NCBI GenBank assembly: GCA_033439295.1
Contig: JAVTLE010000013.1
Span: 2,108,001-2,172,000 of the forward strand
Source of the DNA: Deuterostichococcus epilithicus
Taxonomy: Eukaryota > Chlorophyta > Trebouxiophyceae > Prasiolales > Stichococcaceae
Length of the DNA stretch: 64,000 nucleotides
Direction of reading: 5' to 3'
The notes below the pieces were generated by a model. The model worked only from the letters and a program-made list of their open reading frames with translations. It searched no databases and was not told the DNA's origin. The translations under genes and the position numbers were made by a program. Below, piece after piece: positions 21,476-41,100 of the stretch; the stretch's first letter is position 1, and the number at the start of each line of letters is the position of its first letter.

Positions 21476-22318
21476 CTTGACTTGGACTCGGACTTGGTTA
21501 CATACTGTGCAGTCAAGTGGCTAACTATAGCACAGGCCCGAAGGCGGTCGGAATGCGCAACAGCAAGCGACAAGCTGAGGAACCAACCGGGATAGGCGTC
21601 GCGCAGACCAAAACGACATTGGCAACCATGTCAAGTCATAGAGTCATGTGCCACAGCACCCGCGAGTAAACCCAGTAGACCCCGCGCAGACATACAGGAC
21701 CAGTTGCGCACAAGGCACCAAGCTCTCTGGCTCGCTAAGACCGGAAACGCCGTGAGGTGCCCTGCATGCTGGTGGAAGCAGGCCAAACACAAAAGCCAAG
21801 GAATGAAAAAAACCTGCTAGGCCTGACCTCCCGCTACCAAGGCTGCGGGATGTCTGACTGCGCAACATGCCTAAAGTGCCCCCGGCACCCGAGCTAGCCG
21901 CTCCCATCGCAGGTTTCCGCGAGCGCTATGGCACACCACTCCGAAACCCAAACACAGAAAATGAAATCGCCATCTACCCCCATGCCGACCCTAAAAGTCC
22001 CGAGAGCAAGGTGCCCTCTGCCTCGAAAGCATGATGATGGTAGGCCTCATTGAGAGCTCGAGCCCAACCCCTCTAGCTCCGCGCAGCGATCGGCGCAATG
22101 CCGCAGAAACACCCCCAAGCTGGCAGGGTCCTGTTGCATGAACGCCTCGACCGTGGCGTCGCCCCGGCTGAACAACTCCACGTGCTGGAGGCGCTGGTCT
22201 AGCAGAGCAGAACACCCCCAGAGCATGTGCTCTGCGTCATCAACCTCGCCGCTGTCGCAGCGCTGACAGCTGCGCTGCTCGCGCGGCAGACCGGCCCACC
22301 GCCCTGTCTCCACCCGCA
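21476..22318 (-). mobile_element. LINE copy 1: 3'UTR plus C-terminal ORF fragment, 5'-truncated
   Basis: Reading the minus strand from right to left, the fragment contains the end of the LINE ORF (zinc-knuckle text CQRCDSGEVDDAEHMLWGC and the terminal GLGSSSQ at about 22,047), then a ~560-bp 3'UTR, and finally the family's hexamer tail (AAGTCC units, slightly mutated here) at 21,476-21,500. The 5' part is missing at 22,318, where an opposite-strand copy begins. Confidence 0.75.
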
Positions 22319-22647
22319 GCCTTGGCAGCGGGAGGTCAGGCCTAGCAGGTGTTTTTCAGTCCTTGGCTTTTGTGTTTGGCCTGTTTCCACCAGCATGCAG
22401 GGCGCCTCACGGCGTTTCCGGTCCCAGCGAGCCAGAGAGCTCGACGCCTTGTGCGCAACTGGTCCTGTATGTCTGCGCGGGGTTTACTGGGTTACCCGCG
22501 GGTGCTGTGGCACATGACTCTATGACTCGACGCCATTTCCGTTTGTTCCCTCAGCTTGTCGCTTGCTGTTGCGCATTCCGACCGCCTTCGGGCCTGTGCT
22601 ATAGTCAGCCACTTGACTGCACAGTATGTAACCAAGACCAAGACTGT
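22319..22647 (+). mobile_element. LINE copy 2: short 5'-truncated 3'UTR with degenerate tail
   Basis: Only the 3'UTR of the same LINE family is present, on the plus strand, ending in a mutated tail (aaccaagaccaag). It is flanked by two nearly identical ~170-bp stretches (22,148-22,318 and 22,648-22,818) that encode the zinc-knuckle region on the minus strand. Confidence 0.7.
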
Positions 22648-25374
22648 GGCGTCGCCCCGGCTGAACAGCTCCACGTGCTGGAGGCGCTGGTCTAGCAGAG
22701 CAGAACACCCCCAGAGCATGTGCTCTGCGTCATCAACCTCGCCGCTGTCGCAGCGCTGACAGCTGCGCTGCTCGCGCGGCAGACCGGCCCACCGCCCTGT
22801 CTCCACCCGCAGCCAATGGGAGCCGGTGCGAAACTGCGCCAGCCGAACACGGCCGGTCCTGGAGGCCACCGCCTGCAGATACATAGCTGGTTCGTAGGCA
22901 CCAAAAGCCAAAGGGCCCCGAATCTGCAGCCACTCGCGCACCTTGCGGGCGTCGCTACCATTCACCGACTCAAAGTGTCGGCGCTGCAGCACTGCTGTGG
23001 CTGCGTCAGGGTCGATGTGCTGCGGCACACCGTCAACAATGGGGGACATGAAGTCCAGGAACGAGGCCACCTGGGCTGCCCAGCAGGCCGAGTGGATGCC
23101 GCCGCCGCGGCCGGCCATGCTGACGTTCTCGAGGAAGGCCTGCTTGGTCAGCCGCGTGTCGGGCATGTCCACCAGCCGGTTCCAGAAGCGGCAGATCAGC
23201 GTCACTGTTGTGTGCGTCGCCTCAAAGCGGCCCGCCTCGCCGAGTAGCGCCGCCTTGGGCGTGCCTGCACGCACGCCAAGAAGAGCCCGCAAAAAGCTCC
23301 TCTGCACTTTCTCACAAGCCTCCATGCCGCTGGCCTTGCCACACAGCGCCCCAGGCCCCCAAGTTTCCACACCGTACAGCATCACCGGGCGCACAAGTGC
23401 GTCAAAAAGATGCATGAGCAGTGCAGGATCATGCAGCCCGAGATCACGACAGCGATTATGCAGTGCGAGCGCGGCGCGTCGGGCGGACGCCGCCCGGTCC
23501 GCTGCGCTCGAAGCAAGTGGCTTCGTGCTGTGCAGGTCAACCCCCAGGTACCTGAACGTGTCAAGCACCTCGATGGGGGCGGATATGTAGGTGAGCTGTG
23601 GCGCCGCCACCGCGCCGCGTGCAGTGGTGTAAACCACCACCTTCGTCTTCTTAACGTTGACGGTGAGCCGCCAGCGTTTGCTGTATGCCTGCAAGAGGTC
23701 CAGCTGCGCCTGCAGGCCGGCGACGGTGGTGGACACCAGTGCCAGGTCGTCCGCGTAGAAGAGCGCCGGCGTCTGCACGCCGGACAGTGTGGGAAGAGCG
23801 AAGCCGGCGGAGCCGGCTTCGAGCTCAGCCTGGAAGTCATCAATGAAGATGCCAAACAGGGTTGGAGACAGTGGGCAGCCCTGTTTCACACCTAGCAGGG
23901 AATCGAACGTGGCAGACATGCCGTCAGCAAACTGCACCCCCATGGGCACCTCCGCATACAAAGCCTGCACCGCCCGCAAGAAGTCCCCATGCACCCCGAT
24001 GCGTTGCAGTTTGTGCCACAGCAGGTCACGTGGAATGGTGTCATATGCTTTTTTGAAGTCAACGTAACATACATACTTGGACTTGGACTTGGTTACATAC
24101 TGTGCAGTCAAGTGGCTGTCTATAGCACAGGCCCGAAGGCGGTCGGAATGCGCAACAGCAAGCGACATGCTGAGGGAACAAACGGAAAGGGCGTCGAGCA
24201 GACCAAAACGACATCGGCAACCATGTCCAGTCATAGACTCATGTGCCACAGCACCCGCGGGTAAACCCAGTAAACCCCGTGCAAACATACAGGGCCAGTT
24301 GCGCGCAAAGCGCCGAGCTCTCTGGCTCGCTTGGACTGGAAACGCCGTGAGGCGCCCTGCATGCTGGTGGAAGCAGACCAAACACAACAGCCAAGGACTG
24401 AAAAACACCTGCTAAGCCTAACCTCCCCCTGCCAAGGCTACGGGATGTCTGACTGCGCAACATGCCTAAAGTGCCCCCGGCATCTGAGCTAGCCGCTCCC
24501 ATTGCAGGATTCCGCGAGCGCTATGGCACACCACTCCGAAACCCAAACACAGAGAATGAACTCTCCATCTACCCCCATGCCGGCCCCAATACAGCGGCTT
24601 TTTGTCTGCACGGGCTCGCTCAATGAGCGTGCGGAGCACAAACACCTGGTCAGTGGTGCGGTGGTCCCTCCGGAAGCCAGCCTGTCCGCGGGCACGCAGC
24701 CCGTGGCGCTCGGTCCACTCCATGAGCCTCTCGTTGAGCATCGCAGCGTACAGCTTTGCTAAAAGAGAGCCCACCGCGATGCCGCGGTAGTTGCCAGGGT
24801 CAGTGATGTCGCCACCCTTGTGGATGGGGGTGATGCCGCAAAGCGCCCAAGCGCGCGGCAGCGCCCCCACCCTCTGGCAAGCATTGAAGACGGCAGCAAG
24901 ACACGGCGCGAGCTCAGCAGCAGCAACAGAGAGAGCATCAAGCTCAAGCACACCCACAATTGACTTGCCACCATGCAGGGACTCAATGCCCTTGATGACA
25001 GAGGCACCTGTGAACTGCACATTCAACTCGGAACCATCTGCGGCTGGTGGCGCGGCGCCGGCGTCGGCTGTCGGGTCCTCTTGCACATCATAAGGGATGA
25101 AGGGCTGCTGCCCCAGCAGATCACGAAAGTCGTCAGCCATGGCATCATCAGGCACAGCGCAGACACGCTTCTTGGCAACTTTGAATTTGCCCCAGAAGCG
25201 CGCCGGGTTGGCCTGGGCCAGGGTAAGGAGGGCGATGGCCTGGCTGCGCGTCCAGCGGCTCAGCTTGCGCCGCAGCGCGCGCTGGTACTCAGCGCGCGTC
25301 GCGCGAGCCGCGTGCGAACGCGGATCGCTGCGCATGGCCTGCCGCGCTGCGCGCCGGCCGTCGGCCAGCTCCGG
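22648..25374 (-). pseudogene. LINE reverse transcriptase region, split by a nested insertion
   Basis: On the minus strand the ORF runs from ELADGRRAARQAM (25,374) through the RT core to the start of the zinc-knuckle region. RT motifs are plain: DFKKAYDTIP (motif A), GVKQGCPLSPTLFGIF (motif B) and FYADDLALV (catalytic YADD, motif C). A CCHC-type knuckle (C-x2-C-x9-H-x4-C) follows. The sequence is interrupted at 24,076-24,592 by another LINE 3'UTR copy, exactly between KKPLY and VCYVDF; removing that insertion restores frame. The endonuclease region is absent. The encoded enzyme would copy its own RNA at a nicked target (target-primed reverse transcription). The clade cannot be fixed by eye. 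Confidence 0.8.
24076..24592 (-). mobile_element. Nested LINE 3'UTR insertion inside the RT ORF
   Basis: A 517-bp 5'-truncated 3'UTR copy with two to three hexamer tail units is inserted in the RT coding sequence. A 4-bp target-site duplication (ATAC) can be read at both edges by comparison with the uninterrupted RT copy at 26,185-26,210. Confidence 0.8.
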
Positions 25375-25996
25375 GCATTGCGCTGATCGCTGCGCGGAGG
25401 AGCTAGAGGGCTTGGGCTCGAGCTCTCAATGAGGCCTATCATCATCATGCTTTCGAGGCAGAGGGCACCTTGCTGTCGGGACTTTTGGGGTCGGCATGGG
25501 GGTAGATGGCGATTTCATTCTCTGTGTTTGGGTTTCGGAGTGATGTGCCATAGCGCTCGCGGAATCCTGCGATGGGAGCGGCTAGCTCAGGTGCCGGGGG
25601 CACTTTAGGCATGTTGCGCAGTCAGACATCCCGCAGCCTTGGCAGCGGGAGGTCAGGCCTAGCAGGTGTTTTTCAGTCCTTGGCTTTTGTTTTTGGCCTG
25701 CTTCCACCAGCATGCAGGGCGCCTCACGGCGTTTCCGGTCCCAGCGAGCCAGAGAGCTCGGCGCCTTGTGCGCAACTGGTCCTGTATGTCTGCGCGGGGT
25801 TTACTGGGTTTACCCGCGGGTGCTGTGGCACATGACTCTATGACTGGACATGGTTGCCGATGTCGTTTTGGTCTGCTCGACGCCCTCTCCGTTTGTTCCC
25901 TCAGCTTGTCGCTTGCTGTTGCGCATTCCGACCGCCTTCGGGCCTGTGCTATAGTCAGCCACTTGACTGCACAGTATGTAACCAAGTCCAAGTCCA
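25375..25996 (+). mobile_element. LINE 3' end: ORF C-terminus, 3'UTR and tail
   Basis: It starts inside the last ~20 codons of the ORF (CADRCAEELEGLGSSSQ), continues through the complete 3'UTR and ends in AAGTCC units at 25,996. It abuts, in opposite orientation, the 5'-most residues of the RT fragment to its left. That is the layout expected from twin-priming inversion of one insertion. Confidence 0.7.
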
Positions 25997-27057
25997 AGGC
26001 ATCGCGGTGGGCTCTCTGTTAGCAAAGCTGTACGCAGCGATGCTCAACGAGAGGCTCATGGAGTGGACCGAGCGCCACGGGCTGCGTGCCCGCGGACAGG
26101 CTGGCTTCCGGAGGGACCACCGCACCACTGACCAGGTGTTTGTGCTCCGCACGCTTATTGAGCGAGCCCGTGCAGACAAAAAGCCGCTGTATGTATGTTA
26201 CGTTGACTTCAAAAAAGCATATGACACCATTCCACGTGACCTGCTGTGGCACAAACTGCAACGCATCGGGGTGCATGGGGACTTCTTGCGGGCGGTGCAG
26301 GCTTTGTATGCGGAGGTGCCCATGGGGGTGCAGTTTGCTGACGGCATGTCTGCCACGTTCGATTCCCTGCTAGGTGTGAAACAGGGCTGCCCACTTTCTC
26401 CAACCCTGTTTGGCATCTTCATTGATGACTTCCAGGCTGAGCTCGAAGCCGGCTCCGCCGGCTTCGCCCTTCCCACACTGTCCGGCGTGCAGACGCCGGC
26501 GCTCTTCTACGCGGACGACCTGGCACTGGTGTCCACCACCGTCGCCGGCCTGCAGGCGCAGCTGGACCTCTTGCAGGCATACAGCAAGCGCTGGCGGCTC
26601 ACCGTCAACGTCATGAAGACGAAGGTGGTGGTGTACACCACCGCGCGTGGCGCGGTGGCGGCGCCACAGCTTACCTACATGTCCGCCCCCATCGAGGTGC
26701 TTGACACGTTCAGGTACCTGGGGGTTGACCTGCACAACACGAAGCCATTTGCTTCGAGCGCAGCGGACCGGGCGGCGTCCGCCCGACGCGCCGCGCTCGC
26801 ACTTGGACTTGGACTTGGACTTGGTTACATACTGTGCAGTCAAGTGGCTGACTATAGCACAGGCCCGAAGGCGGTCGGAATGCGCAACAGCAAGCGACAT
26901 GCTGAGGGAACAAACGGAAAGGGCGTCGAGCAGATCAAAACGACATCGGCAACCATGTCCAGTCACAGAGTCATGTGCCACAGCACTCGCGGGTAAACCA
27001 CTGCATAATCGCTGTCGTGATCTCGGGCTGCATGATCCTACACTGCTCATGCATCTC
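25997..27057 (+). pseudogene. Second LINE reverse transcriptase fragment (plus strand)
   Basis: The RT core is repeated here in the opposite orientation to the 22,648-25,374 copy, from GIAVGSLLAKLYAAMLNERL through motifs A, B and C to just past the region encoding ALHNRCRDLGLHDPALL. It is interrupted at 26,811-26,995 by a minus-strand 3'UTR copy, with the host sequence resuming after a CACT duplication. It differs from the other copy by a few substitutions (for example MKTK against KKTK). Confidence 0.75.
26811..26995 (-). mobile_element. Nested 185-bp LINE 3'UTR fragment at the palindrome's left edge
   Basis: Three hexamer tail units followed by a short 3'UTR segment sit inside the RT fragment and are flanked by CACT on both sides. 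The left arm of the giant palindrome begins at this tail (26,813); its mirror tail ends the right arm at 36,163. Confidence 0.75.
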
Positions 27058-27500
27058 TGTGATGCCGCAAAGCGCCCTAGCGCGCGGCAGCGCCCCCACC
27101 CTCTGGCAAGCATTGAAGACGGCAGCAAGACACGGACTTGGACTTGGTTACATACTGTGCAGTCAAGTGGCTGACTATAGCACAGGCCCGAAGGCGGTCG
27201 GAATGCGCAACAGCAAGCGACATGCTGAGGGAACAAACGGAAAGGGCGTCGAGCAGACCAAAACGACATCGGCAACCATGTCCAGTCATAGACTCATGTG
27301 CCACAGCACCCGCGGGTAAACCCAGTAAACCCCGTGCAGACATACAGGGCCAGTTGCGCGCAAAGCGCCGAGCTCTCTGGCTCGCTTGGACTGGAAACGC
27401 CGTGAGGCGCCCTGCATGCTGGTGGAAGCAGACCAAACACAACAGCCAAGGACTGAAAAACGGCGCGAGCTCAGCAGCAGCAACAGAGAGGGCATCAAGA
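27058..27500 (-). mobile_element. LINE RT upstream fragment with a nested 3'UTR copy
   Basis: Two short minus-strand pieces of the RT N-terminal region (27,058-27,133 and 27,465-27,500) are separated by a 3'UTR copy (27,134-27,464) that carries the tail at its left end. The host reads continuously across the insertion after allowing for an ACGG target-site duplication. Confidence 0.7.
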
Positions 27501-27983
27501 TCTGCCGCTTCTGGAACCGGCTGGTGGACATGCCCGACGCGCGGCTGTGTCGCTTGCTGTTGCGCATTCCGACCGCCTTCGGGCCTGTGCTATAGTCAGC
27601 CACTTGACTGCACAGTACGTAACCAAGTCCAGTCCAGTCCAGCTGACCAAGCAAGCCTTCCTCGAGAACGTCAGCATGGCCGGCCGCGGCGGCGGCATCC
27701 ACTCGGCCTGTTGGGCAGCCCAGGTGGCCTCGTTCCTGGACTTCATGTCACCCATTGTTGACGGTGTGCCGCAGCACATCGACCCTGACGCAGCCACGGC
27801 GGTGCTGCAGCGCCGACACTTTGAGTCGGTGAATGGCAGCGACGCCCGCAAGGTACGCGAGTGGCTGCAGATTCGGGGCCCTCTGGCTTTTGGTGCCTAC
27901 GGACCAGCTATGTATCTGCAGGCGGTGGCCTCCAGGACCGGCCGTGTTCGGATGGCGCAGTTGCGCACCGGCTCCCATTGGCT
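27501..27983 (+). mobile_element. LINE ORF C-terminal fragment with a 92-bp tail insertion
   Basis: Plus-strand C-terminal ORF text (CRFWNRLVDMPD, then LTKQAFLENVSMAGRGGG) is split at 27,547-27,638 by a 92-bp 3'UTR end with a variant tail (agtccagtccag). GCTG is duplicated at the edges. This is the shortest insertion in the island. Confidence 0.75.
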
Positions 27984-28917
27984 GGACTTGGACTTGGACT
28001 TGGACTTGGTTACATACTGTGCAGTCAAGTGGCTGACTATAGCACAGGCCCGAAGGCGGTCGGAATGCGCAACAGCAAGCGACATGCTGAGGGAACAAAC
28101 GGAAAGGGCGTCGAGCAGATCAAAACGACATCGGCAACCATGTCCAGTCATAGACTCATGTGCCACAGCACCCGCGGGTAAACCCAGTAAACCCCGTGCA
28201 GACATACAGGGCCAGTTGCGCGCAAAGCGCCGAGCTCTCTGGCTCGCTTGGACTGGAAACGCCGTGAGGCGCCCTGCATGCTGGTGGAAGCAGACCAAAC
28301 ACAACAGCCAAGGACTGAAAAACACCTGCTAAGCCTAACCTCCCCCTGCCAAGGCTACGGGATGTCTGACTGCGCAACATGCCTAAAGTGCCCCCGGCAT
28401 CTGAGCTAGCCGCTCCCATCGCAGGATTCCGCGAGCGCTATGGCACACCACTCCGAAAACCAAACACAGAGAATGAACTCTCCATCTACCCCCATGCCGG
28501 CCCCAAAAGTCCCGACAGCAAGGTGCCCTCTGCCTCGAAAGCATGATGATGATAGGCCTCATTGAGAGCTCGAGCCCCAGCCCACTAGCTCCGCGCAGCG
28601 ATCGGCGCAATGCCGCAGAAACACCCCCAAGCTGGCAGGGTCCTGCTGCATGAACGCCTCGACTGTGGCGTCGCCCCGGCTGAACAGCTCCACGTGCTGG
28701 AGGCGCTGGTCTAGCAGAGCAGAACACCCCCAGAGCATGTGCTCTGCGTCATCAACCTCGCCGCTGTCGCAGCGCTGACAGCTGCGCTGCTCGCGCGGCA
28801 GACCGGCCCACCGCCCTGTCTCCACCCGCAGCCAATGGGAGCCGGTGCGAAACTGCGCCAGCCGAACGCGGCCGGTCCTGGAGGCCACCGCCTGCAGATA
28901 CATAGCTGGTTCGTAGG
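27984..28917 (-). mobile_element. LINE 3' end: tail, 3'UTR and zinc-knuckle ORF end
   Basis: Four hexamer tail units at 27,984-28,008 are followed (minus strand) by the 3'UTR and the last ~115 codons of the ORF, ending at YEPAMYLQ at 28,917. There the sequence switches to the plus-strand endonuclease region. Confidence 0.75.
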
Positions 28918-30953
28918 CCACAGGGCTGCTCTGCCTTACTGCGTCTTGATGGCTGCATCGGGCAGGAGGAGGATGCATACATGTTTGCATGCTACATTCC
29001 ACCAGAGGGCAGCTCAGCACTAGCTGGGAAGGGACCTGCGGTTTGGGAGGCATTGAGTGAGGAGGTTGGGGCCACCTCGCGCTTGGGTCATGTCTTTGTC
29101 ATTGGGGACCTGAATGCACGCACAGCCACATTCCCGGATTTTCCCGGGACCATCACTCACCCCATTCGGGAGCCTTTCCTGTCCACCGGCGCCGAGCCAG
29201 TGCGGTCGAAGCGACACAGTCGCGACCCGCTGGCGCGGCCAAACCTGTGGGGCACGGAGCTGCTCGATCTGTGCATCTCCACCAGCATGCGCATTGCTAA
29301 CGGTCGTGTGTCGGGTGATGAGCAGGGACAGGTTACTTTTGTCAGCCAGAGTCAGGAGGGCAGCAGCCTCATCGACTATGTGCTGTCCAGCCCTGACGCC
29401 ATGCCCCTCATTCAGTCTTTGCAGGTGATGCCGGCGCCGGAGTCGGACCACCTTGCTGTGGTCTTGCAGATAGAGCGTTGCTCCGCAGCCAGCCCGACCT
29501 CGCAACGGCGGCGCCCGCGCCGCCGGCCAGCAATGCCGCCGCCGCCGCCGCCGGCTCCCGAGCCGCCGCGCCTTAAGACGGACGTGCAGCTGGCCGCATG
29601 GCAGGAGCTGCTGCGGCAGCCTGACTCAGTCATGGATCTGTATCTGATGGAGGTTGCAGCTTGTACTGCCGCAACCCCGGCAGACATCCATGAGGCAGGA
29701 CAGCAGTTCGACTCTTTCGTTGAGCGCACGCAGGCACAGGTGCTGGCGTCGCAGCCGGCCGCCAAGGGGCGGCGGCGCGGCGCCAAGGAGCAGCCAGACT
29801 GGTGGGACAAGGAGCTGGCCGACGGCCGGCGCGCAGCGCGGCAGGCCATGCGCAGTGATCCGCGTTCGCACGCGGCTCGCGCGGCGCGCGCTGAGTACCA
29901 GCGCGCGCTGCGGCGCAAGCTGAGCCGCTGGACGCGCAGCCAGGCCATCGCCCTCCTCACCCTGGCCCAGGCCAACCCGGCGCGCTTCTGGGCCAAATTC
30001 AAAGTTGCCAAGAAGCGTGTTTGCGCTGTGCCTGATGATGCCATGGCTAACTACTTTCGTGATCTGCTGGGGCAGCAGCCCGTCATCCCTTCTGATGTGC
30101 AAGAGGACCCGACAGCTGACGCCGGCGCCGCGCCACCAGCCGCAGATGGTTCCGAGTTGAATAGGCAGTTCACAGGTGCCTCTGTCACCAAGGTCATTGA
30201 GTCCCTGCATAGTGGCAAGTCAACTGTGGGTGTGCTTAAGCTTGATGCTCGGCTGGTGGACATGCCCGACACGCGGCTGACCAAGCAGGCCTTCCTCGAG
30301 AACGTCAGCATGGCCGGCCGCGGCGGCGGCATCCACTCGGCCTGCTGGGCAGCCCAGGTGGCCTCGTTCCTGGACTTCATGTCCCCCATTGTTGACGGTG
30401 TGCCGCAGCACATCGACCCTGACGCAGCCACAGCAGTGCTGCAGCGCCGACACTTTGAGTCGGTGAATGGTAGCGACGCCCGCAAGGTGCGCGAGTGGCT
30501 GCAGATTCGGGGCCCTTTGGCTTTTGGTGCCTACGAACCAGCTATGTATCTGCAGGCGGTGGCCTCCAGGACCGGCCGTGTTCGGCTGGCGCAGTTTCGC
30601 ACCGGCTCCCATTGGCTGCGGGTGGAGACAGGGCGGTGGGCCGGTCTGCCGCGCGAGCAGCGCAGCTGTCAGCGCTGCGACAGCGGCGAGGTTGATGACG
30701 CAGAGCACATGCTCTGGGGGTGTTCTGCTCTGCTAGACCAGCGCCTCCAGCACGTGGAGCTGTTCAGCCGGGGCGACGCCGCAGTCGAGGCGTTCATGCA
30801 ACAGGACCCTGCCAGCTTGGGGGTGTTTCTGCGGCATTGCGCCGATCGCTGCGCGGAGCTAGAGGGCTTGGGCTCGAGCTCTCAATGAGGCCTATCATCA
30901 TCATGGTTTCGAGGCAGAGGGCACCTTGCTGTCGGGACTTTTGGAGTCGGCAT
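28918..30953 (+). pseudogene. LINE ORF with the RT core deleted in frame (left-arm copy)
   Basis: The 635-codon ORF (28,981-30,888, open upstream to 28,918) begins inside an exonuclease-endonuclease-phosphatase domain: VFIGDLNAR-type text at 29,095 and the terminal SDHLAVVLQI at 29,448 are the characteristic motifs, but the N-terminal active-site part is missing. It continues into the pre-RT region, then jumps at about 30,250 from GVLKLDA directly to RLVDMPDTRLTKQAFLENV, losing about 1.2 kb that encodes all RT motifs, and ends with the CCHC knuckle and GLGSSSQ. The jump keeps frame and has no GT-AG ends, so it is a deletion or template switch rather than an intron. The protein could not reverse transcribe. 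Confidence 0.8.
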
Positions 30954-32016
30954 GGGGACTTGGACTTGGTTACAACTGTGCAGTCAAGTGCCTGACTATA
31001 GCACAGGCCCGAAGGCGGTCAGAATGCGCAACAGCAAGCAACATGCTGAGGGAACAAACGGAAAGGGCGTCGAGCAGATCAAAACGACATCGGCAACCAT
31101 GTCCAGTCATAGACTCATGTGCCACAGCACCCGCGGGTAAACCCAGCAAACCCCGTGCAGACATACAGGGCCAGTTGCGCGCAAAGCGCCGAGCTCTCTG
31201 GCAAGGCCAGCGGCATGGAGGCTTGTGAGAAAGTGCAGAGGAGCTTTTTGCGGGCTCTTCTTGGCGTGCGTGCAAGCACGCACAAGGCGGCGCTACTCGG
31301 CGAGGCGGGCCGCTTTGAGGCGGCGCACACAGCAGTGACGCTGATCTTGGACTTGGACTTGGACTTGGTTACATACTGTGCAGTCAAGTGGCTGACTATA
31401 GCACAGGCCCGAAGGCGGTCGGAATGCGCAACAGCAAGCGACAAGCTGAGGGAATAAACGGAAAGGGCGTCGAGCAGACCAAAACGACATCGGTAACCAT
31501 GTCCAGTCATAGAGTCATGTGCCACAGCACCCGCGGGTAAACCCAGTAAACCCCGCGCAGACATACAGGACCAGTTGCGCACAAGGCGCCGAGCTCTCTG
31601 GCTCGCTGGGACCGGAAACGCCGTGAGGCGCCCTGCATGCTGGTGGAAGCAGACCAAACACAACAGCCAAGGACTGAAAAACTCACGCTAAGCCTAACCT
31701 CCCGCTGCCAACGCTGCGGGATGTCTGACTGCGCAACATGCCTAAACTGCCCCCGGCACCTGAGCTAGCCGCTCCCATCGCAGGATTCCGCAAGCGCTAT
31801 GGCACACCACTCCGAAACCCAAACACAGAAAATGAAATCGCCATCTACCCCCATCTCTATGACTGGACATGGTTGCCGATGTTGTTTTTTGGTCTGCTCA
31901 ACGCCCTTTCCGTTTGTCCCCTCAGCTTGTCGCCTACTGTTGCGCATTCTGACCGCCTTCGGGCCTGTGCTATAGTCAGGCACTTGACTGCACAGTATGT
32001 AACCAAGTCCAAGTCC
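30954..32016. mobile_element. Palindrome spacer built of four LINE fragments
   Basis: In order: a minus-strand 3'UTR with tail (30,954-31,199), a plus-strand RT C-terminal scrap (31,200-31,345, EACEKVQRSFLRALLGV), a minus-strand 3'UTR with three tail units (31,346-31,855), and a plus-strand 161-bp 3'UTR end (31,856-32,016). The last piece is flanked by CCCCAT, a target-site duplication inside the minus-strand 3'UTR that continues into the right arm. The innermost ~160 bp on each side are related but clearly diverged, unlike the arms. Confidence 0.7.
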
Positions 32017-35000
32017 CCATGCCGACTCCAAAAGTCCCGACAGCAAGGTGCCCTCTGCCTCGAAACCATGATGATGATAGGCCTCATTGAGAGCTCGAGC
32101 CCAAGCCCTCTAGCTCCGCGCAGCGATCGGCGCAATGCCGCAGAAACACCCCCAAGCTGGCAGGGTCCTGTTGCATGAACGCCTCGACTGCGGCGTCGCC
32201 CCGGCTGAACAGCTCCACGTGCTGGAGGCGCTGGTCTAGCAGAGCAGAACACCCCCAGAGCATGTGCTCTGCGTCATCAACCTCGCCGCTGTCGCAGCGC
32301 TGACAGCTGCGCTGCTCGCGCGGCAGACCGGCCCACCGCCCTGTCTCCACCCGCAGCCAATGGGAGCCGGTGCGAAACTGCGCCAGCCGAACACGGCCGG
32401 TCCTGGAGGCCACCGCCTGCAGATACATAGCTGGTTCGTAGGCACCAAAAGCCAAAGGGCCCCGAATCTGCAGCCACTCGCGCACCTTGCGGGCGTCGCT
32501 ACCATTCACCGACTCAAAGTGTCGGCGCTGCAGCACTGCTGTGGCTGCGTCAGGGTCGATGTGCTGCGGCACACCGTCAACAATGGGGGACATGAAGTCC
32601 AGGAACGAGGCCACCTGGGCTGCCCAGCAGGCCGAGTGGATGCCGCCGCCGCGGCCGGCCATGCTGACGTTCTCGAGGAAGGCCTGCTTGGTCAGCCGCG
32701 TGTCGGGCATGTCCACCAGCCGAGCATCAAGCTTAAGCACACCCACAGTTGACTTGCCACTATGCAGGGACTCAATGACCTTGGTGACAGAGGCACCTGT
32801 GAACTGCCTATTCAACTCGGAACCATCTGCGGCTGGTGGCGCGGCGCCGGCGTCGGCTGTCGGGTCCTCTTGCACATCAGAAGGGATGACGGGCTGCTGC
32901 CCCAGCAGATCACGAAAGTAGTTAGCCATGGCATCATCAGGCACAGCGCAAACACGCTTCTTGGCAACTTTGAATTTGGCCCAGAAGCGCGCCGGGTTGG
33001 CCTGGGCCAGGGTGAGGAGGGCGATGGCCTGGCTGCGCGTCCAGCGGCTCAGCTTGCGCCGCAGCGCGCGCTGGTACTCAGCGCGCGCCGCGCGAGCCGC
33101 GTGCGAACGCGGATCGCTGCGCATGGCCTGCCGCGCTGCGCGCCGGCCGTCGGCCAGCTCCTTGTCCCACCAGTCTGGCTGCTCCTTGGCGCCGCGCCGC
33201 CGCCCCTTGGCGGCCGGCTGCGACGCCAGCACCTGTGCCTGCGTGCGCTCAACGAAAGAGTCGAACTGCTGTCCTGCCTCATGGATGTCTGCCGGGGTTG
33301 CGGCAGTACAAGCTGCAACCTCCATCAGATACAGATCCATGACTGAGTCAGGCTGCCGCAGCAGCTCCTGCCATGCGGCCAGCTGCACGTCCGTCTTAAG
33401 GCGCGGCGGCTCGGGAGCCGGCGGCGGCGGCGGCGGCATTGCTGGCCGGCGGCGCGGGCGCCGCCGTTGCGAGGTCGGGCTGGCTGCGGAGCAACGCTCT
33501 ATCTGCAAGACCACAGCAAGGTGGTCCGACTCCGGCGCCGGCATCACCTGCAAAGACTGAATGAGGGGCATGGCGTCAGGGCTGGACAGCACATAGTCGA
33601 TGAGGCTGCTGCCCTCCTGACTCTGGCTGACAAAAGTAACCTGTCCCTGCTCATCACCCGACACACGACCGTTAGCAATGCGCATGCTGGTGGAGATGCA
33701 CAGATCGAGCAGCTCCGTGCCCCACAGGTTTGGCCGCGCCAGCGGGTCGCGACTGTGTCGCTTCGACCGCACTGGCTCGGCGCCGGTGGACAGGAAAGGC
33801 TCCCGAATGGGGTGAGTGATGGTCCCGGGAAAATCCGGGAATGTGGCTGTGCGTGCATTCAGGTCCCCAATGACAAAGACATGACCCAAGCGCGAGGTGG
33901 CCCCAACCTCCTCACTCAATGCCTCCCAAACCGCAGGTCCCTTCCCAGCTAGTGCTGAGCTGCCCTCTGGTGGAATGTAGCATGCAAACATGTATGCATC
34001 CTCCTCCTGCCCGATGCAGCCATCAAGACGCAGTAAGGCAGAGCAGCCCTGTGGCCTACGAACCAGCTATGTATCTGCAGGCGGTGGCCTCCAGGACCGG
34101 CCGCGTTCGGCTGGCGCAGTTTCGCACCGGCTCCCATTGGCTGCGGGTGGAGACAGGGCGGTGGGCCGGTCTGCCGCGCGAGCAGCGCAGCTGTCAGCGC
34201 TGCGACAGCGGCGAGGTTGATGACGCAGAGCACATGCTCTGGGGGTGTTCTGCTCTGCTAGACCAGCGCCTCCAGCACGTGGAGCTGTTCAGCCGGGGCG
34301 ACGCCACAGTCGAGGCGTTCATGCAGCAGGACCCTGCCAGCTTGGGGGTGTTTCTGCGGCATTGCGCCGATCGCTGCGCGGAGCTAGTGGGCTGGGGCTC
34401 GAGCTCTCAATGAGGCCTATCATCATCATGCTTTCGAGGCAGAGGGCACCTTGCTGTCGGGACTTTTGGGGCCGGCATGGGGGTAGATGGAGAGTTCATT
34501 CTCTGTGTTTGGTTTTCGGAGTGGTGTGCCATAGCGCTCGCGGAATCCTGCGATGGGAGCGGCTAGCTCAGATGCCGGGGGCACTTTAGGCATGTTGCGC
34601 AGTCAGACATCCCGTAGCCTTGGCAGGGGGAGGTTAGGCTTAGCAGGTGTTTTTCAGTCCTTGGCTGTTGTGTTTGGTCTGCTTCCACCAGCATGCAGGG
34701 CGCCTCACGGCGTTTCCAGTCCAAGCGAGCCAGAGAGCTCGGCGCTTTGCGCGCAACTGGCCCTGTATGTCTGCACGGGGTTTACTGGGTTTACCCGCGG
34801 GTGCTGTGGCACATGACTCTATGACTGGACATGGTTGCCGATGTCGTTTTGATCTGCTCGACGCCCTTTCCGTTTGTTCCCTCAGCATGTCGCTTGCTGT
34901 TGCGCATTCCGACCGCCTTCGGGCCTGTGCTATAGTCAGCCACTTGACTGCACAGTATGTAACCAAGTCCAAGTCCAAGTCCAAGTCCAGCCAATGGGAG

Positions 35001-36163
35001 CCGGTGCGCAACTGCGCCATCCGAACACGGCCGGTCCTGGAGGCCACCGCCTGCAGATACATAGCTGGTCCGTAGGCACCAAAAGCCAGAGGGCCCCGAA
35101 TCTGCAGCCACTCGCGTACCTTGCGGGCGTCGCTGCCATTCACCGACTCAAAGTGTCGGCGCTGCAGCACCGCCGTGGCTGCGTCAGGGTCGATGTGCTG
35201 CGGCACACCGTCAACAATGGGTGACATGAAGTCCAGGAACGAGGCCACCTGGGCAGCCCAACAGGCCGAGTGGATGCCGCCGCCGCGGCCGGCCATGCTG
35301 ACGTTCTCGAGGAAGGCTTGCTTGGTCAGCTGGACTGGACTGGACTTGGTTACGTACTGTGCAGTCAAGTGGCTGACTATAGCACAGGCCCGAAGGCGGT
35401 CGGAATGCGCAACAGCAAGCGACACAGCCGCGCGTCGGGCATGTCCACCAGCCGGTTCCAGAAGCGGCAGATCTTGATGCCCTCTCTGTTGCTGCTGCTG
35501 AGCTCGCGCCGTTTTTCAGTCCTTGGCTGTTGTGTTTGGTCTGCTTCCACCAGCATGCAGGGCGGGCGCCTCACGGCGTTTCCAGTCCAAGCGAGCCAGA
35601 GAGCTCGGCGCTTTGCGCGCAACTGGCCCTGTATGTCTGCACGGGGTTTACTGGGTTTACCCGCAGGTGCTGTGGCACATGAGTCTATGACTGGACATGG
35701 TTGCCGATGTCGTTTTGGTCTGCTCGACGCCCTTTCCGTTTGTTCCCTCAGCATGTCGCTTGCTGTTGCGCATTCCGACCGCCTTCGGGCCTGTGCTATA
35801 GTCAGCCACTTGACTGCACAGTATGTAACCAAGTCCAAGTCCGTGTCTTGCTGCCGTCTTCAATGCTTGCCAGAGGGTGGGGGCGCTGCCGCGCGCTTGG
35901 GCGCTTTGCGGCATCACAGAGATGCATGAGCAGTGTAGGATCATGCAGCCCGAGATCACGACAGCGATTATGCAGTGGTTTACCCGCGAGTGCTGTGGCA
36001 CATGACTCTGTGACTGGACATGGTTGCCGATGTCGTTTTGATCTGCTCGACGCCCTTTCCGTTTGTTCCCTCAGCATGTCGCTTGCTGTTGCGCATTCCG
36101 ACCGCCTTCGGGCCTGTGCTATAGTCAGGCACTTGACTGCACAGTATGTAACCAAGTCCAAAG
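32016..36163. repeat. Right arm of the giant palindrome (~4.15 kb)
   Basis: This is the reverse complement of 26,813-30,955 with few substitutions and a 4-bp insertion near 35,565. It ends at the LINE tail (aaccaagtccaaagtcc) at about 36,165, after which unrelated SINE-like sequence begins. Confidence 0.9.
32084..33991 (-). pseudogene. LINE ORF with the RT core deleted in frame (right-arm copy)
   Basis: This is the mirror copy of the left-arm ORF: same 635-codon length, same partial endonuclease domain, same in-frame loss of the RT core and same C-terminal CCHC knuckle. Sharing the identical deletion junction shows that the deletion predates the inverted duplication. Confidence 0.8.
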
Positions 36164-36165
36164 TC

Positions 36166-36715
36166 CACATATGACTGCCCTGCTTTCGCATTGCTTCGGC
36201 AATCACCCATCGCTATCGATCACCTTCGGGTGACACTCCACCATCTTGATTGTGTATATGTGTTCATTTGATTCCACTTTCACAACCAACCTTCCGGTCA
36301 AAGGTTCTTCCACTTTTCACGCTCCACACACCCATAGAATGTGTGTGCAAGGTTTGAGGAGAAACGAGAAGCCACAGAAAATTGCGGCTGGAGGATCCTT
36401 GTTGTTGGTTGGTTGACGAACGTGCCGCTGAGCGCGTTGCCACCACCACCCCCACGTGGTTGGAAAACGGAAAAATACCCATGGGGTCTCGAGTTCGATT
36501 CCTCATGCGGACAAAAAAAGGAGTGAATTGGGTCATAGTCATACATATGACTGCCCTGCTTTCGCATTGCTTCGGCAATCACCCATCGCTATCGATCACC
36601 TTCGGGTGACACTCCACCATCTTGGTTGTGTATATGTGTTCATTTGATTCCACTTTCACAACCAACCTTCCGGTCAAAGGTTCTTTCACTTTTCACGCTC
36701 CACCACCCCCAAGTT
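36166..36715 (+). mobile_element. SINE-like tRNA-derived unit with a partial direct repeat
   Basis: A ~165-bp segment at 36,168-36,335 recurs almost exactly at 36,543-36,710. Between them lies a tRNA-like head with a good B-box match (gagttcgattcc, about 36,489-36,500) and a weak A-box-like string (gtgccgctgagcg, about 36,422). A tRNA-derived head followed by a unique tail suggests a SINE, with a 5'-truncated copy just upstream. The alternative is a small terminal-repeat element: the repeated unit can be framed to start TG and end CA. No protein is encoded. Confidence 0.45.
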
Positions 36716-36819
36716 GCCGGAGTCCAGGGCATGCGCAGACGCTTCGCCGTGTATGTTGATTGCTTGTGTGACGAGGGCGTGGTGTTTTGACGTGCGTGGA
36801 AAATTTTACCGAACGTGCA

Positions 36820-37385
36820 GACGGAAAGGTGCGGCATGGGAGTAGCTGGCGATTTCATTTAGGGTTAAGGGTCGTCATAGGAGTAGCTGGCGATTTCAAT
36901 TTCCGTGTTTGGGTTTCGGAGTGGTGTGCCATAGCGCTTGCGGAATCCTGTAATGGGAGCGGCTACCTCAGAGGCCAGGGGCACTTTAGACATGTTGCGC
37001 AGTTAGACATCCCGCAGCCTTGGCAGCGGGAAGCTTAAGCCTAGCATGGGTTTTGAGCCTTCAGCTTTCGTGTTTGGTCTGCTTCCACCAGCATGCAGGG
37101 CGCCTCACGGCGTTTCCGGTCCCAACGACCCAGAGAGCTCGGCGCCCTGTGCGCAACTGGTCATGTATGTCTGCACGGGGTTTACTGGGTTCACCCACGG
37201 GTGTTGTGGCACATGACTCTATGACTGGACATGGTTGGCGATGTCGTTTTCTGTCGGTTCAATGCCTTTTCCGGTTGGTCCCTCAGCTTGTACCTATGTC
37301 GCGCATTCCGACCACCTTCGGGCCTATGCTATAGTCAGCCACTTGACTGCACAATATGTAATCAAGTCCAAGTCCAAGTCCAAGC
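36820..37385 (+). mobile_element. Diverged LINE 3'UTR copy with (AAGTCC)n tail
   Basis: The sequence aligns over its length with the family 3'UTR but with many substitutions (for example ttggcgatgtcgttttctgtcg against the usual ttgccg...). It ends in three to four tail units at 37,363-37,385. A short internal duplication (ggagtagctggcgatttca at about 36,839 and 36,880) is present near its 5' end. Confidence 0.65.
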
Positions 37386-37399
37386 TGTTTGATGGTCCG

Positions 37400-38180
37400 G
37401 CAAGGGCGGCGGTATGCGGGGTCAAACCGGCAGTGGCGATGGTAGGTGGCTTGTGGCGGGCAGCTGGCGGCGATGGTGGCGGGTGGTGTGTAGCGGCGGG
37501 CGGCCGTAAGTGACGGCGAGTGACGGGAATGTCTGGGGGGTCGCGGTGGGTGACGGGTTGGCTGGCGGGTAGTGGCGGGCGGCAAGTGGTTGTGAGTGAT
37601 GGGTGGTGGTGAGTGTTGAAAACCTATGCATAGGCGGCGGTGAGTGTTGGAAAATACAAGCTGGCTGTCGCATGGTGAATGTATGTCGCGTCTATGGCGG
37701 CGGTTATGACGCCAACAGTGGAGGGTGACGGCAAGTGACGGGAGTTGGCGGCCGGAGAGTGGCAGGTGGCAAGTGGTGGCGGGTGGCGGCGGTGGCGGCA
37801 TTTGGCGGCGGTGCCAGCGGGTGGCGGCGTGTGGCAGCGGGTGGCGGCCGCCGACGATGATGGTGGTGGTGGGCAGCAGGCGGCGGGTCATGAGTGACGG
37901 CGATGGTTGTGGTAGGCGGCGGATGACTAAGTGGTGGAGGCAGGTGGTGGCAATCGACGGCAACAAGTGGCAGTAGTGGCGACTGGTGGTGAGTGCTTAG
38001 AAACGTTGTTTGGGTGGCGGTGAGTTTTGACACACTATTGGAGTGGCGGGTGGCGGGTAGCAAATGGCGGCGGGTGAAGGGTGGCGGGTGCCAGGCGCCG
38101 AGCTAACAGTGAAGATGGGTGGCAGGTGGCGGGTTGCGAGTGACGGCGAAGGTGGTGGCATGACACCTGGTGGCCTGACG
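37400..38180. repeat. G-rich minisatellite-like block
   Basis: About 780 bp of the plus strand consist of degenerate GGTGGCGG-type units (ggtggcgggtggcggc and variants) with strong G/C strand asymmetry. Long frames on both strands are low-complexity artefacts (His/Pro/Thr on the minus strand). The dense GG and GGG runs could form G-quadruplexes. Confidence 0.7.
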
Positions 38181-40096
38181 GGAGTGGCCTTGGTCGGCAG
38201 CCGGGGGCGGCCCGCGGCGGCTACATGAGCTACCACTGCATCCCGCACCATTTGTAAGCTGTACATGGCGATGCGTTAGCCGAGCTGCGCTTCGAGGCTG
38301 ATTAGCCGCTCTTGTGGTGGGCGTCGATGTGGGCATGGGCATCAAGCTGGTGAGTGTGCTGGATGGTGGCAAGCGTGATGGGGATGGCCCGGGCAAAGAC
38401 GGCCCTACGGGCCTGCACGTGCTGCCGCCGAGCACTAAGACACACAACTCCAAAATTCAAACACAAGAACCGAAATCGCCAACTATGCCGATGCCAAAAC
38501 CAAAAGTCCCGAAAGCAAGGCGCCCTCTGCCTCGAAAGCTGATGGTAGGCCTCACTGAGAGCTCGAGCTCCACCCCCTCTAACTCCGCGCTGTAATCGGC
38601 GCAGAACTGCGGGAACACCCCCAAGCTGGCAGGGTCCTACTGCATGAACACCTCGACCGTGGCGTCGCACCAGCTAAACAACTCCACGTGCTACAGGCGC
38701 TGATCTAGTAGAGCACAACACCCCTAGATCATGTGCTCCGCGTCCTCGTCATAAAGCTCACCATTGGTGCAGCGCTTGCAACTATGTTGCCCACGTGAAA
38801 TCTCGGCCTATCAACCTGTCTTCACCTCGAGCCAGTGCGAACTTACGACGAGCGAATACGATCAAAACTGGAAGTCCGCGGAATGCAGCCACTATAGCAG
38901 CTGTCCGTGGTAGGCAAGGCTAGTTTACGAGGTAGCATCGAGAGATTGCAAGGGAACGAGCACATACGCTGAGTGCCCCGCTGTGCGTGTGCGGCTGCTG
39001 GCTGTGGGTGGCTGGGTATCTCTGGCTATTTCAAGCGACAAGGGAGGCGGATGTTCGAAGGAAGGTGCTGCAAGCGGAATTGTGCCCCGAGCCGCTGCAA
39101 TCACAGCAATGCGAACAAACGAGGAATCTTCCATGGCACCGACAGGGTCTCATGACTAAACACCACGAATCCTGTGTGTTAGTGGTGCTTAAGTGCTCCT
39201 CCAATAGCACGACTGCAACCACTTGCGTACTTTGCGGGCGTCGTTCTACAAAAAGCTCGTTCATTGATTCAATGTGTCGGCGTTGCTGCACTGCTGTGGC
39301 ATGGTTGATCTGCAGAGGCACACTGTCAGCAATGGGAGACATGAAGTCCACAAGCGAGGCCACTCATTCGTGGCCACTCGCCGCCACTTGCTGTTACACC
39401 CGCTGCCCACCACACCCCATCTTTGACCCACTGTCAGATTGCCGCCCGCCACCCGCTATCTGCCGCCGCCTTTGCCCGTCATTGCTGTCACATTACAAGA
39501 GCCACTGGCGTCGCTTTCATCTGTCACCGCCGCCTCTCTACCCGACGCATAGTCACCGTCAGGACTATTGCCGTACCATCCGGAGAGCACTATCATCATC
39601 ATCACCGTCACCATCGACATCCTCGTCACCATCGGGTAGAAAACCGTCACTATCACGTCGCCATCATCATCACCGAGACCTAGAGGGAGAAGACATGGTG
39701 GAAGACCAGAAAGCACTGGTGGCACGGTCACATGTAGAGTCGGGCACCCGCGGACCCCGCCGGGATGGAGGCGTCGACCTCAGATGACCGGGGTGTCCGG
39801 CGTTGCGCATTAGCGGATAGCTGGCGGCGTCAGCCGCCTAGATGTCACCCATTGCGAGTGCTGGCACTTGGTTTTATATGGGCTCGGTTGCTTTCACTAG
39901 CATGTCGGGCGCCTCATGGCGAATTTGGTTCCAGCGAGCCAGAGGGCTCGCCGCCGTGTGCACTACCGGTATTGCATGTCTGCGCGGGGTTGACTAGGTT
40001 TACTCGCGGGTACCATGGCACATAGAGACTTGAATGGGCATCTCTTACCTAGCGCGCTAGTTTGATAGCAGAGCGTCTGAGCCGCGTGTGCGTGGC

Positions 40097-40154
40097 ACAA
40101 ACAAACAAACGCACGAACGAACAAACAAACAAACGAACAAACAAACAAACAAAC
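40097..40154. repeat. (AAAC)n simple repeat
   Basis: About 58 bp of AAAC units with a few G interruptions lie inside the decayed LINE region. Confidence 0.85.
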
Positions 40155-41100
40155 GTTGTCAGCAGGGTGAGCGGACGGCATGCTGCCGCCGCGGCCGGCC
40201 ATGCTGACGTGCTTTAAGAACGCCTGCTTGGTGAGCCACACATCCGGCATCTCTGCCAAGTAGTCCCAGAAGCGGTAAAGCAGCGTCATTGTTTAGTGTG
40301 CAACCGCAAACCGGCCCGCCTTGCTGAGTAGCGCTACATTGATTATGCCTGCACACACGCCAGAACGAGCCCGCAAGAAGCTTTCCTGCACTTTCTTACA
40401 GCCTCCATTGCATATGCCTTGCCACATCGCACCCCAGTACCCCATAATTCCACACCGTACAGCATCACAAGGAGTACAAGTGCGTGAAAGCGTTGTATTA
40501 TGTATGAGCAATGAATCTTGCATTCTAAGATCATGACGGCAAGTATGTGGTGCGAGCGCAGCGCGTCGTGCAGACGCCGCCCCGTACACAGTGCTCGCTG
40601 CAAATGCCCTTCATGCTGTGCAGATCAACCCCCAGGTACCTGAACGCATTTAAAAAGGACCTGGTTGGGAACGGACATGTATGTGACCTGTGGCGCCGCC
40701 ACCGCGCCGCGCCGGGGTGGGTTATACCACTTCCTTTGTCTGGAGTGACGGTGAGCCGCCAGCGCTTTCTGTAGGCCCGTAAGAGGTCCAGCTGCGCTTG
40801 CACGACACCATTATCCGTCGTCCACGTGGAAGAGCGCCGGCATGTGACTCCAAATAGTGTGGGAAGGGCGAAGCTGGCAGAACAAACTTCGAGCTCAGCT
40901 TGGAAGTTATAAGTGAAGATGTGGACAACCCCGTCTCACACCTGGAACGGGAATGGAACGTGGCATACATGCCGTCTGCAAACCCATGGGCACCTCTGCA
41001 ATCAAAATCTGTACCGCCCGCAGTAGAGTAATTTCCCATGCACCCCGATGCATTGCAGTTGAAGCCACAGCAGGCCACGAGGAATGGTGTCATACACCGG

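What the first reader, a model, noticed from the sequence alone, without database searches (positions are those of the whole stretch)
26813..36163. Near-perfect 9.35-kb palindrome made of LINE fragments
Two ~4.14-kb arms are reverse complements with only a few substitutions and one 4-bp indel visible, around a ~1.06-kb spacer. Both outer edges coincide with the LINE's hexamer tail, and the same nested insertions and the same RT deletion occur in both arms. The duplication is therefore recent, or the arms are kept identical by gene conversion. Edges set at element tails suggest the inversion arose during or through retrotransposition or recombination between tails. Such palindromes are hot spots for cruciform extrusion and breakage.
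Basis: seen in the sequence. Interest (0 to 1): 0.75.

Follow-up and report, generated by a model that had tools for sequence, protein, structure and literature searches.

The report
Recent palindrome in putative LINE centromere
A 4.2-kb stretch of nested jumping-gene fragments was copied in mirror image next to itself inside what looks like the centromere of a green-alga-like chromosome, apparently by break repair between copies of the jumping gene, so it shows how such centromeres may be rebuilt.

Summary
The palindrome is real in the assembly: 26810-31113 pairs with 31856-36167 at 99.47%. Most differences sit at two seams; the arms proper (26848-31034 / 31937-36128) differ by 6 substitutions, a 4-bp and a 1-bp indel in 4187 bp. 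The window lies in a 46.8-Mb, 21-contig eukaryotic genome with CCCTAAA telomeres. The LINE forms one cluster on each of 15 contigs of 1.6-4.8 Mb (45.0 Mb), plus one on a 14.7-kb contig; no RT match of 54% identity or more lies elsewhere. This is the Zepp pattern of green-algal centromeres. Both seams look like hybrid LINE 3' ends, and target-site duplications are intact only at the left outer and right inner ends. The best reading is an inverted 4.2-kb duplication copied during break repair through LINE 3'-UTR homology, not by retrotransposition. A second near-perfect palindrome (9.75-kb arms, 99.75%) lies in cluster C6. Of 6 fully read clusters 2 have one, so palindromes are not an obligatory part. 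No reads or CENH3 data were available: centromere identity and absence of assembly error remain inferred.

The parts
21479..37384 (.). Nested LINE cluster (putative centromere core) that holds the palindrome
   Evidence: one such cluster per large contig
26848..31034 (+). Left arm proper (between seams)
31937..36128 (-). Right arm proper, mirror copy of the left arm; 6 substitutions, 4-bp and 1-bp indel
31035..31936 (.). Centre between the seams: 5' part of hybrid LINE s, RT fragment t, LINE 3' end u, 5' part of v
25998..26803 (+). g: RT fragment (E4137-4942) outside the left arm, continued inside it by i; ends in the CACT repeat 26800-26803
26802..26999 (-). h: 5'-truncated LINE 3' end, tail at left; native insertion flanked by CACT/CACT (the last two bases could belong to the tail)
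26999..27062 (+). i: RT continuation (E4939-5002) of g, inside the arm
27134..27461 (-). k: nested LINE 3' end with 4-bp flank overlap; mirrored at 35511-35842
27548..27641 (+). n: nested LINE 3' end with 4-bp flank overlap; mirrored at 35331-35424
27987..28918 (-). p: LINE 3' segment (E5506-6437); mirrored at 34054-34985
28917..30957 (+). q-r: endonuclease and linker (E2654-3985) joined to E5226-5934, RT deleted; mirrored at 32015-34055; a 660-aa open frame spans 28906-30888
30956..31202 (-). s: inner-seam hybrid LINE 3' end; its 3' 78 bp match v (bar a 1-bp deletion), its 5' part differs
31199..31347 (+). t: RT fragment (E5063-5211) in the centre
31346..31854 (-). u: LINE 3' end (E5929-6437), read as the 3' part of the same LINE as 32015-34055
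31856..32016 (+). v: LINE 3' end inserted between u and r' with a CCCAT target duplication (native context)
35977..36167 (+). h': outer-seam hybrid; h markers 15G, 48A, 84A plus the rare 142G; tail joined to non-LINE sequence
36168..36868 (+). w: right flank with a 259-bp SINE-like repeat (36456-36714) and a partial copy (36167-36333)

Best explanation
The region is a Zepp-type nested LINE cluster, most likely the centromere core of this chromosome. The palindrome is a recent inverted duplication inside it. Before the event the order was left flank - g - h - i ... r - v - u - t - S0 - w - right flank, in one copy. A break near the right edge of the cluster was repaired with the wrong template: the right-hand end, a LINE 3' end next to w, paired with the inverted LINE 3' end h about 5 kb away (on the sister chromatid or the same chromatid). 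About 5.1 kb was copied, from h through r, v, u and t into S0, and the new strand then annealed by LINE homology to v on the left-hand end (synthesis-dependent strand annealing, or break-induced replication ending in annealing). 4.2 kb of this is now present twice. Shown: arm identity, the composite structure shared by both arms, the marker pattern of the LINE ends at the two seams, and the two target-site duplications that are intact only at opposite ends. Inferred: the break, the template, the order of steps and centromere identity.
For: (1) Seam markers. Inner: s and v share 107C>T (2 of 66 aligned copies) and 142C>G (3 of 66), have no substitution in their last 78 bp, but 8 substitutions in the next 80 bp (Fisher p=0.0065; 8 in 80 against 6 in 4187 bp of arm p=3e-11). 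Outer: h' carries h's 15G (4 of 66 copies), 48A and 84A, and ends in 142G, which h lacks. By exact 15-mer the 142G form occurs 3 times against 73 for the common form in the six clusters plus contig C2, and not in 18 further, partly overlapping loci. (2) g|h|i keeps a CACT duplication only at the left outer end; u|v|r' keeps a CCCAT duplication only at the right inner end; the partners are missing at the mirror positions. Each half therefore preserves what the other lost, as expected if both come from one ancestor. (3) The deletion junction occurs only in the two arms (exact pattern, whole genome), and a 201-bp query over h-i-j-k has full-length matches only in the two arms (40 of 197 candidates scored), so the source was this locus. 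(4) Context: 72 of 79 RT matches are 54% identical or more, and all 72 lie in one cluster per contig on 16 contigs; 57 of 58 matches of the right flank w, mostly its SINE-like part, lie in or within 5 kb of the same clusters (40 of 63 candidates scored).
Against: The LINE's last 80 bp or so vary less among copies anyway (about 1-2% per site from the majority, against 3-6% in the preceding 80 bp), so the 0-in-78 against 8-in-80 contrast is partly expected; the inner seam then rests mainly on two shared rare variants. The outer seam rests on one substitution plus tail differences. The 142G variant is shared by v and by the right outer LINE end, which in the simplest model are different copies; this needs an earlier conversion or a common source. 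Flank overlaps are not uniform: of 12 insertions with LINE on both sides, 9 show 4-6 bp and 3 (all C4) show none or a loss. No reads were available, so an assembly error through LINE repeats is not excluded. Centromere identity rests on distribution alone. The C6 palindrome has a different inner junction (a fold-back between E4641 and E4575 of the RT gene), so one mechanism does not cover both. Nine of 15 clusters were not read in full.
Confidence: 0.62

Rival explanations
1. Retrotransposition-coupled inversion: a LINE insertion (twin priming, or TPRT followed by template switching) created the inverted copy, which is why the edges lie at tails.
For: Outer edges lie at LINE tails. A LINE 3' end (u, 31346-31854) lies at the centre. 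In contig C2 the outer edge of the C6 palindrome is also a tail.
Against: u belongs to the same LINE as the right arm: u and r' are contiguous on the element, split by v with a 5-6 bp target duplication, so u is not a new insertion at the join. Twin priming inverts one element, not an 11-piece composite. Markers switch inside the 3' UTR.
Confidence: 0.12
2. Old palindrome whose arms are kept identical by arm-to-arm gene conversion while the LINE ends beside the spacer escaped conversion and diverged.
For: s and v occupy the same site in mirror positions and differ in their 5' halves. Contig C2 is a mosaic of left-arm and right-arm variants of the C6 palindrome.
Against: In its 5' part s carries 48A and 84A, which are common in the family (26 and 20 of 66 copies) and which v lacks, so the difference looks like another LINE copy rather than drift. 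No arm-to-arm tract evidence was found at C11.
Confidence: 0.13
3. Assembly artefact: the assembler traversed one arm twice through LINE repeats, or a fold-back read was incorporated.
For: Hybrid LINE ends at both seams are also what a repeat-mediated misjoin would leave. C2 is a redundant 14.7-kb contig of the C6 palindrome, and N bases sit at several positions in the C6 arms, some where the arms differ, so the assembly struggled there.
Against: The C11 arms differ at 6 substitutions and two indels and contain no N (the only N in the window is 43450). The flanks of the two arms differ. Contigs of 1.6-4.8 Mb that run through such clusters point to long reads (inference). The opposite-end pattern of the two target duplications is not a natural product of a misjoin.
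Confidence: 0.12
4. The inverted repeat is a functional design, like the inverted repeats of S. pombe and Candida tropicalis centromeres, selected for kinetochore assembly.
For: Location in a putative centromere; a second large palindrome in another cluster. In C. tropicalis, inverted orientation of the repeats matters for de novo CENP-A recruitment (PMC4741521, passages).
Against: Only 2 of 6 fully read clusters have such a palindrome. The two have different centres, and their arms are far more alike than ordinary LINE copies, hence young.
Confidence: 0.05

Closest known systems
Zepp LINE clusters of Coccomyxa subellipsoidea C-169 (PMC3446292; section on Zepp read whole, other passages)
   Same: Nested LINE clusters (1.5-42.3 kb), apparently one per chromosome, mostly internal, proposed as centromeres.
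   Different: That section reports no tandem satellites in or near the clusters, whereas here LINE-derived repeats in tandem occur on C6 and C3 (mapped from sequence) and, by hit coordinates only, on C15 and C19. The words palindrom and inverted do not occur in its main text. The tail here is a hexamer repeat; Zepp has poly(A) (recalled).
ZeppL centromeres of Chlamydomonas reinhardtii (PMC8226300 and PMC10030371, passages)
   Same: Centromere-restricted LINE clustered by nested insertion with 5' truncation.
   Different: Far larger there (252-480 kb in strain CC-5816); membership of this LINE in the ZeppL clade was not tested.
TE centromeres of Chlorella (PMC11005252; abstract and Results read; word search)
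   Same: Compact (19-104 kb) TE-made centromeres in trebouxiophytes, seen as blocks in self dot plots; CENH3 ChIP-seq agrees with them in C. sorokiniana.
   Different: Composition mixed (Copia, L1, RTE-X); the words inverted, palindrom and nested do not occur in its main text.
Inverted-repeat centromeres of Candida tropicalis (PMC4741521, passages)
   Same: Inverted repeats at a centromere, 10-11 kb in total.
   Different: There on all seven chromosomes around a CENP-A-bound core; here in 2 of 6 read clusters, with young arms made of LINE debris.
Fold-back inverted duplications after double-strand breaks (PMC10622511, PMC3907307; listing and start of abstract only)
   Same: Break repair that yields a mirror-image duplication; the C6 inner junction resembles it.
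   Different: The C11 seams lie in LINE homology at both ends rather than at a fold-back.
Gene conversion in maize centromere cores (PMC2834711; listing and start of abstract only)
   Same: Non-crossover exchange acting in a centromere.
   Different: Here seen as a structural by-product of copying, not as exchange of markers between chromosomes.

Membership tests
Zepp/ZeppL-type LINE centromere | Exactly one cluster of the element per chromosome and few or no copies elsewhere | tested here: met
   15 of 15 contigs of known length 1.6-4.8 Mb (45.0 of 46.79 Mb; lengths) have one cluster. 72 of 79 RT matches (all with identity 54% or more) lie in clusters, including contig C2; the 7 divergent ones (28-45%) are on C1 (3), C19 (2) and just right of the C11 cluster (2) (all 82 candidates scored). 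Contigs C8, C16, C17, C20 and C21 gave no match (searches scored only part of their candidates); their lengths are unknown except that C8 reaches at least 29 kb
Zepp/ZeppL-type LINE centromere | Nested insertion into existing copies, 3'-biased, 5'-truncated | tested here: met
   54 of 83 LINE 3' ends in six clusters (mirror arms counted separately) have LINE sequence directly on the tail side
Zepp/ZeppL-type LINE centromere | Element belongs to the Zepp branch of the L1 clade | not tested
   No Zepp protein was at hand. RT domain present (RVT_1); nearest solved structures are R2 (1.7e-19) and LINE-1 ORF2 protein (4e-13), which does not settle the clade
Zepp/ZeppL-type LINE centromere | CENH3 occupancy | not testable with these tools
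   No ChIP or read data
Inverted-repeat centromere (C. tropicalis / S. pombe type) | Homogenised inverted repeats around a core at every centromere | tested here: not met
   2 of 6 fully read clusters (C6, C11) have a near-perfect inverted pair. In C1, C3, C4 and C5 the most alike inverted pairs of 700 bp or more are 96.7, 97.4, 98.5 and 98.8%, and the longest is 2.1 kb (97.5%)
Gene-conversion-maintained palindrome (primate Y type, recalled) | Arms more alike than their age allows | tested here: inconclusive
   No outgroup or strain to date the duplication; the C2 mosaic suggests exchange at C6 only

The most novel reading that the evidence does not exclude
In this alga, homology-driven copying between inverted LINE 3' ends is a regular engine of centromere turnover: it repeatedly turns nested LINE debris into large palindromes (C11, C6) and into tandem LINE-derived arrays (C6, C3, C15, C19), so retrotransposon centromeres can begin to change into satellite or inverted-repeat centromeres by repair errors within one genome.
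Probability: 0.33. Interest if true: 0.7.

Novelty: new variant of a known kind. Interest (0 to 1): 0.5.

Why it matters
Green-algal centromeres made largely of one LINE are known, but the passages and sections read here describe them as nested insertions and do not mention palindromes. This palindrome preserves both seams of one copying event, with target-site duplications that tell original from copied ends, so it allows a test of how such centromeres rearrange. Together with the LINE-derived tandem repeats in the same genome it bears on the open question of how centromeric satellites and inverted repeats arise from transposons.

Tried and rejected
C7 inverted pair (893116-894248 / 895787-896919): first looked like a third palindrome (1 difference in 708 bp), but further sequence showed two solo LINE copies with their own tails, 99.3% alike over 1133 bp and sharing no nested structure; not counted. 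C14 inverted LINE pair (hits): could not be read, so it is neither counted nor excluded. First model (right arm simply copied from left into LINE v) was dropped when u and r' proved to be one LINE split by v, which makes the right inner end native. Rfam on 36100-36900: no match at E up to 1. ARAGORN: no tRNA in the window. Two Zepp papers asked for by id are not held. No paper describing palindromes in Zepp-type clusters was seen in searches (listings only, apart from the papers cited); most subscription journals are not in the library.

Full report
OBSERVATION. Self-comparison of the window gives one dominant inverted pair: 26810-31113 and 31856-36167, 99.467% over 4312 columns, 15 mismatches, 4 gap openings, 742-bp spacer. 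The list of differences is uneven. 8 substitutions, a 2-bp gap and a 1-bp gap fall in the innermost 160 bp; one substitution and tail differences lie at the outermost end; the remaining 6 substitutions and a 4-bp indel are spread over the arms. Cut at the marker switches (26848-31034 / 31937-36128), the arms differ by 6 substitutions, the 4-bp and the 1-bp indel in 4187 bp.

CONTEXT. The window is contig C11:2108001-2172000 of a 46,791,984-base, 21-contig genome. Telomere repeats (CCCTAAA) sit at ends of at least seven of the large contigs (C1, C3, C4, C5, C10, C13, C14) in capped lists. The genome is GC-rich and eukaryotic; I take it for a green alga (inference; the species was not identified). 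The repeated element is a LINE with an endonuclease-like domain below Pfam's cut-off and a reverse transcriptase above it; its nearest solved relatives are R2 and LINE-1 ORF2 protein. Copies end in a hexamer tail. Searches with its 3' UTR (74 matches, 40 of 155 candidates scored), RT (79 matches, 82 of 82 scored), endonuclease (25 matches, 25 of 25) and two DNA segments (45 matches, 40 of 127; 30 matches, 26 of 26) place it in one cluster per contig on 15 contigs of 1.60-4.84 Mb, 45.0 Mb in all (lengths), and on the 14.7-kb contig C2, which duplicates part of C6. In one search, 72 of 79 matches have 54% identity or more and all lie in these clusters; the other 7 (28-45%) are on C1 (3), C19 (2) and just right of the C11 cluster (2). 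In one search one match (34%, C1:2422743) lies outside. This is the pattern described for Zepp in Coccomyxa and ZeppL in Chlamydomonas; TE centromeres of Chlorella sorokiniana agree with CENH3 ChIP.

ANATOMY. On a coordinate ruler of the LINE (E numbers) the left arm reads h(-) i(+) j(-) k(-) l(-) m(+) n(+) o(+) p(-) q(+) r(+), and the right arm is the same in mirror image. h, k and n are insertions with 4-bp flank overlaps. Such overlaps are not universal: of 12 insertions with LINE on both sides found in six clusters, 9 show 4-6 bp and 3, all on C4, show none or a small loss. q-r is a LINE with RT deleted (E3985 joined to E5226); that junction, as an exact pattern, occurs twice in the genome, both in this palindrome. 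A 201-bp query over h-i-j-k has full-length matches only at the two arms (40 of 197 candidates scored). So the source of the duplicated block was this locus, not another chromosome.

WHICH PARTS ARE ORIGINAL. At the left outer edge RT fragment g (ending E4942) is continued inside the arm by i (starting E4939) across insertion h, with CACT on both sides. At the right outer edge h' is followed by unrelated sequence w, so its target partner is missing. At the right inner edge u (to E5929) and r' (from E5934) are one LINE interrupted by insertion v, with CCCAT on both sides; at the left inner edge r is followed by s and t, so the partner is missing. The left outer and right inner ends are therefore original in context, and the two halves together spell one ancestor: g-h-i...r-v-u-t-S0-w.

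SEAMS. s sits where v sits in the mirror arm. Its last 78 bp match v without substitution (a 1-bp deletion apart) and share two rare variants, 107C>T (2 of 66 copies) and 142C>G (3 of 66). The next 80 bp carry 8 substitutions and a 2-bp gap against v, and s there has 48A and 84A, which v lacks. A control against this reading: the LINE's last 80 bp or so are more conserved among all copies (about 1-2% per site from the majority, against 3-6% in the 80 bp before), so the contrast alone is partly expected and the shared rare variants carry the argument. h' has h's 15G, 48A and 84A but ends in 142G, which h lacks. The exact 15-mer with 142G occurs only at s, v and h', against 73 occurrences of the common form in six clusters plus contig C2, and was not seen in 18 further loci from other clusters, some overlapping. 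Both seams therefore most likely lie in LINE 3'-UTR homology, the signature of homologous copying rather than of end joining or of a new retrotransposition event. That v and the right outer end share 142G is not explained by the simplest model.

HOW OFTEN. Two of six have a near-perfect palindrome: C11 and C6 (C6:345053-354800 / 357301-367049, 9749 columns, 99.75%). In the other four the most alike inverted pairs of 700 bp or more are 96.7-98.8% and the longest is 2.1 kb, which is ordinary copy-to-copy similarity. At C6 the right arm runs uninterrupted through the inner boundary (E4306-5407), while the left arm stops at E4641 and folds to E4575 beside a GC-rich hairpin, so C6 looks like a fold-back join rather than annealing in LINE homology. 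Contig C2 carries a version of the C6 left arm that runs on to a LINE tail and mixes left-arm and right-arm variants; it may be another haplotype, real arm-to-arm exchange, or a poor contig. An inverted pair on C7 turned out to be two solo LINE copies, and one on C14 could not be read.

VERDICT. It is best explained as a recent inverted duplication made by break repair between LINE 3' ends inside a Zepp-type putative centromere. It is a new variant of a known kind of locus. Palindromes are not a general feature of these clusters (2 of 6), so an essential centromere role is unlikely. Assembly error is unlikely but cannot be excluded without reads.

Noticed in passing
36456-36714 (partial copy 36167-36333); other copies e.g. 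L032:3171-3442, L036:3383-3642, L040:5884-6153, L045:8422-8683: A 259-bp SINE-like repeat with a tRNA-type B box (recalled motif) and UUCG-loop hairpins folds better than any of 200 shuffles (-80.5 vs mean -61.9 kcal/mol, z -3.8). 57 of 58 matches of the 701-bp flank, most of them to this repeat, lie in or within 5 kb of the LINE clusters, one (C14:1637669) outside (40 of 63 candidates scored). At least 2 of 16 near-full copies carry their own 3' end upstream.
   Followed up: partly
L032 near 3442 (C1:1925442) and L039 near 5062 (C4:1213062): Short telomere-like runs (CCCTAA-type) abut the 5' end of the SINE-like repeat at two insertions inside the clusters, hinting at telomeric DNA captured at internal sites.
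   Followed up: no
C6:338683-342939 (L045-L046); C3:1636315-1642180 (L036-L037); C15:906913-910515; C19:752125-758787: Head-to-tail LINE 3'-end units: seven 585-bp composite units on C6 and five same-strand copies in a row on C3; on C15 and C19 seen only as hit coordinates. They look like young satellites born from the LINE.
   Followed up: partly
contig C2:1-14706 (L034, L035) versus C6:344-359 kb: C2 duplicates part of the C6 palindrome with mosaic left/right variants and appears to lack a roughly 590-bp deletion seen at the C6 left edge; several N bases sit in the C6 arms, some at arm differences.
   Followed up: partly
C6:355265-356966 (L047): Spacer of the C6 palindrome holds a different, coding-looking element, 95.9% like C1:1925610-1926454 over 846 bp; not identified.
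   Followed up: no
37400-38200: G-skewed GGTGGCGG-rich repeat next to the cluster; similar sequence lies beside LINE copies on C4 and C7.
   Followed up: no
38429-41094: Old, degenerate LINE fragments (75-82%) right of the cluster, suggesting that the cluster edge has moved or shrunk.
   Followed up: no
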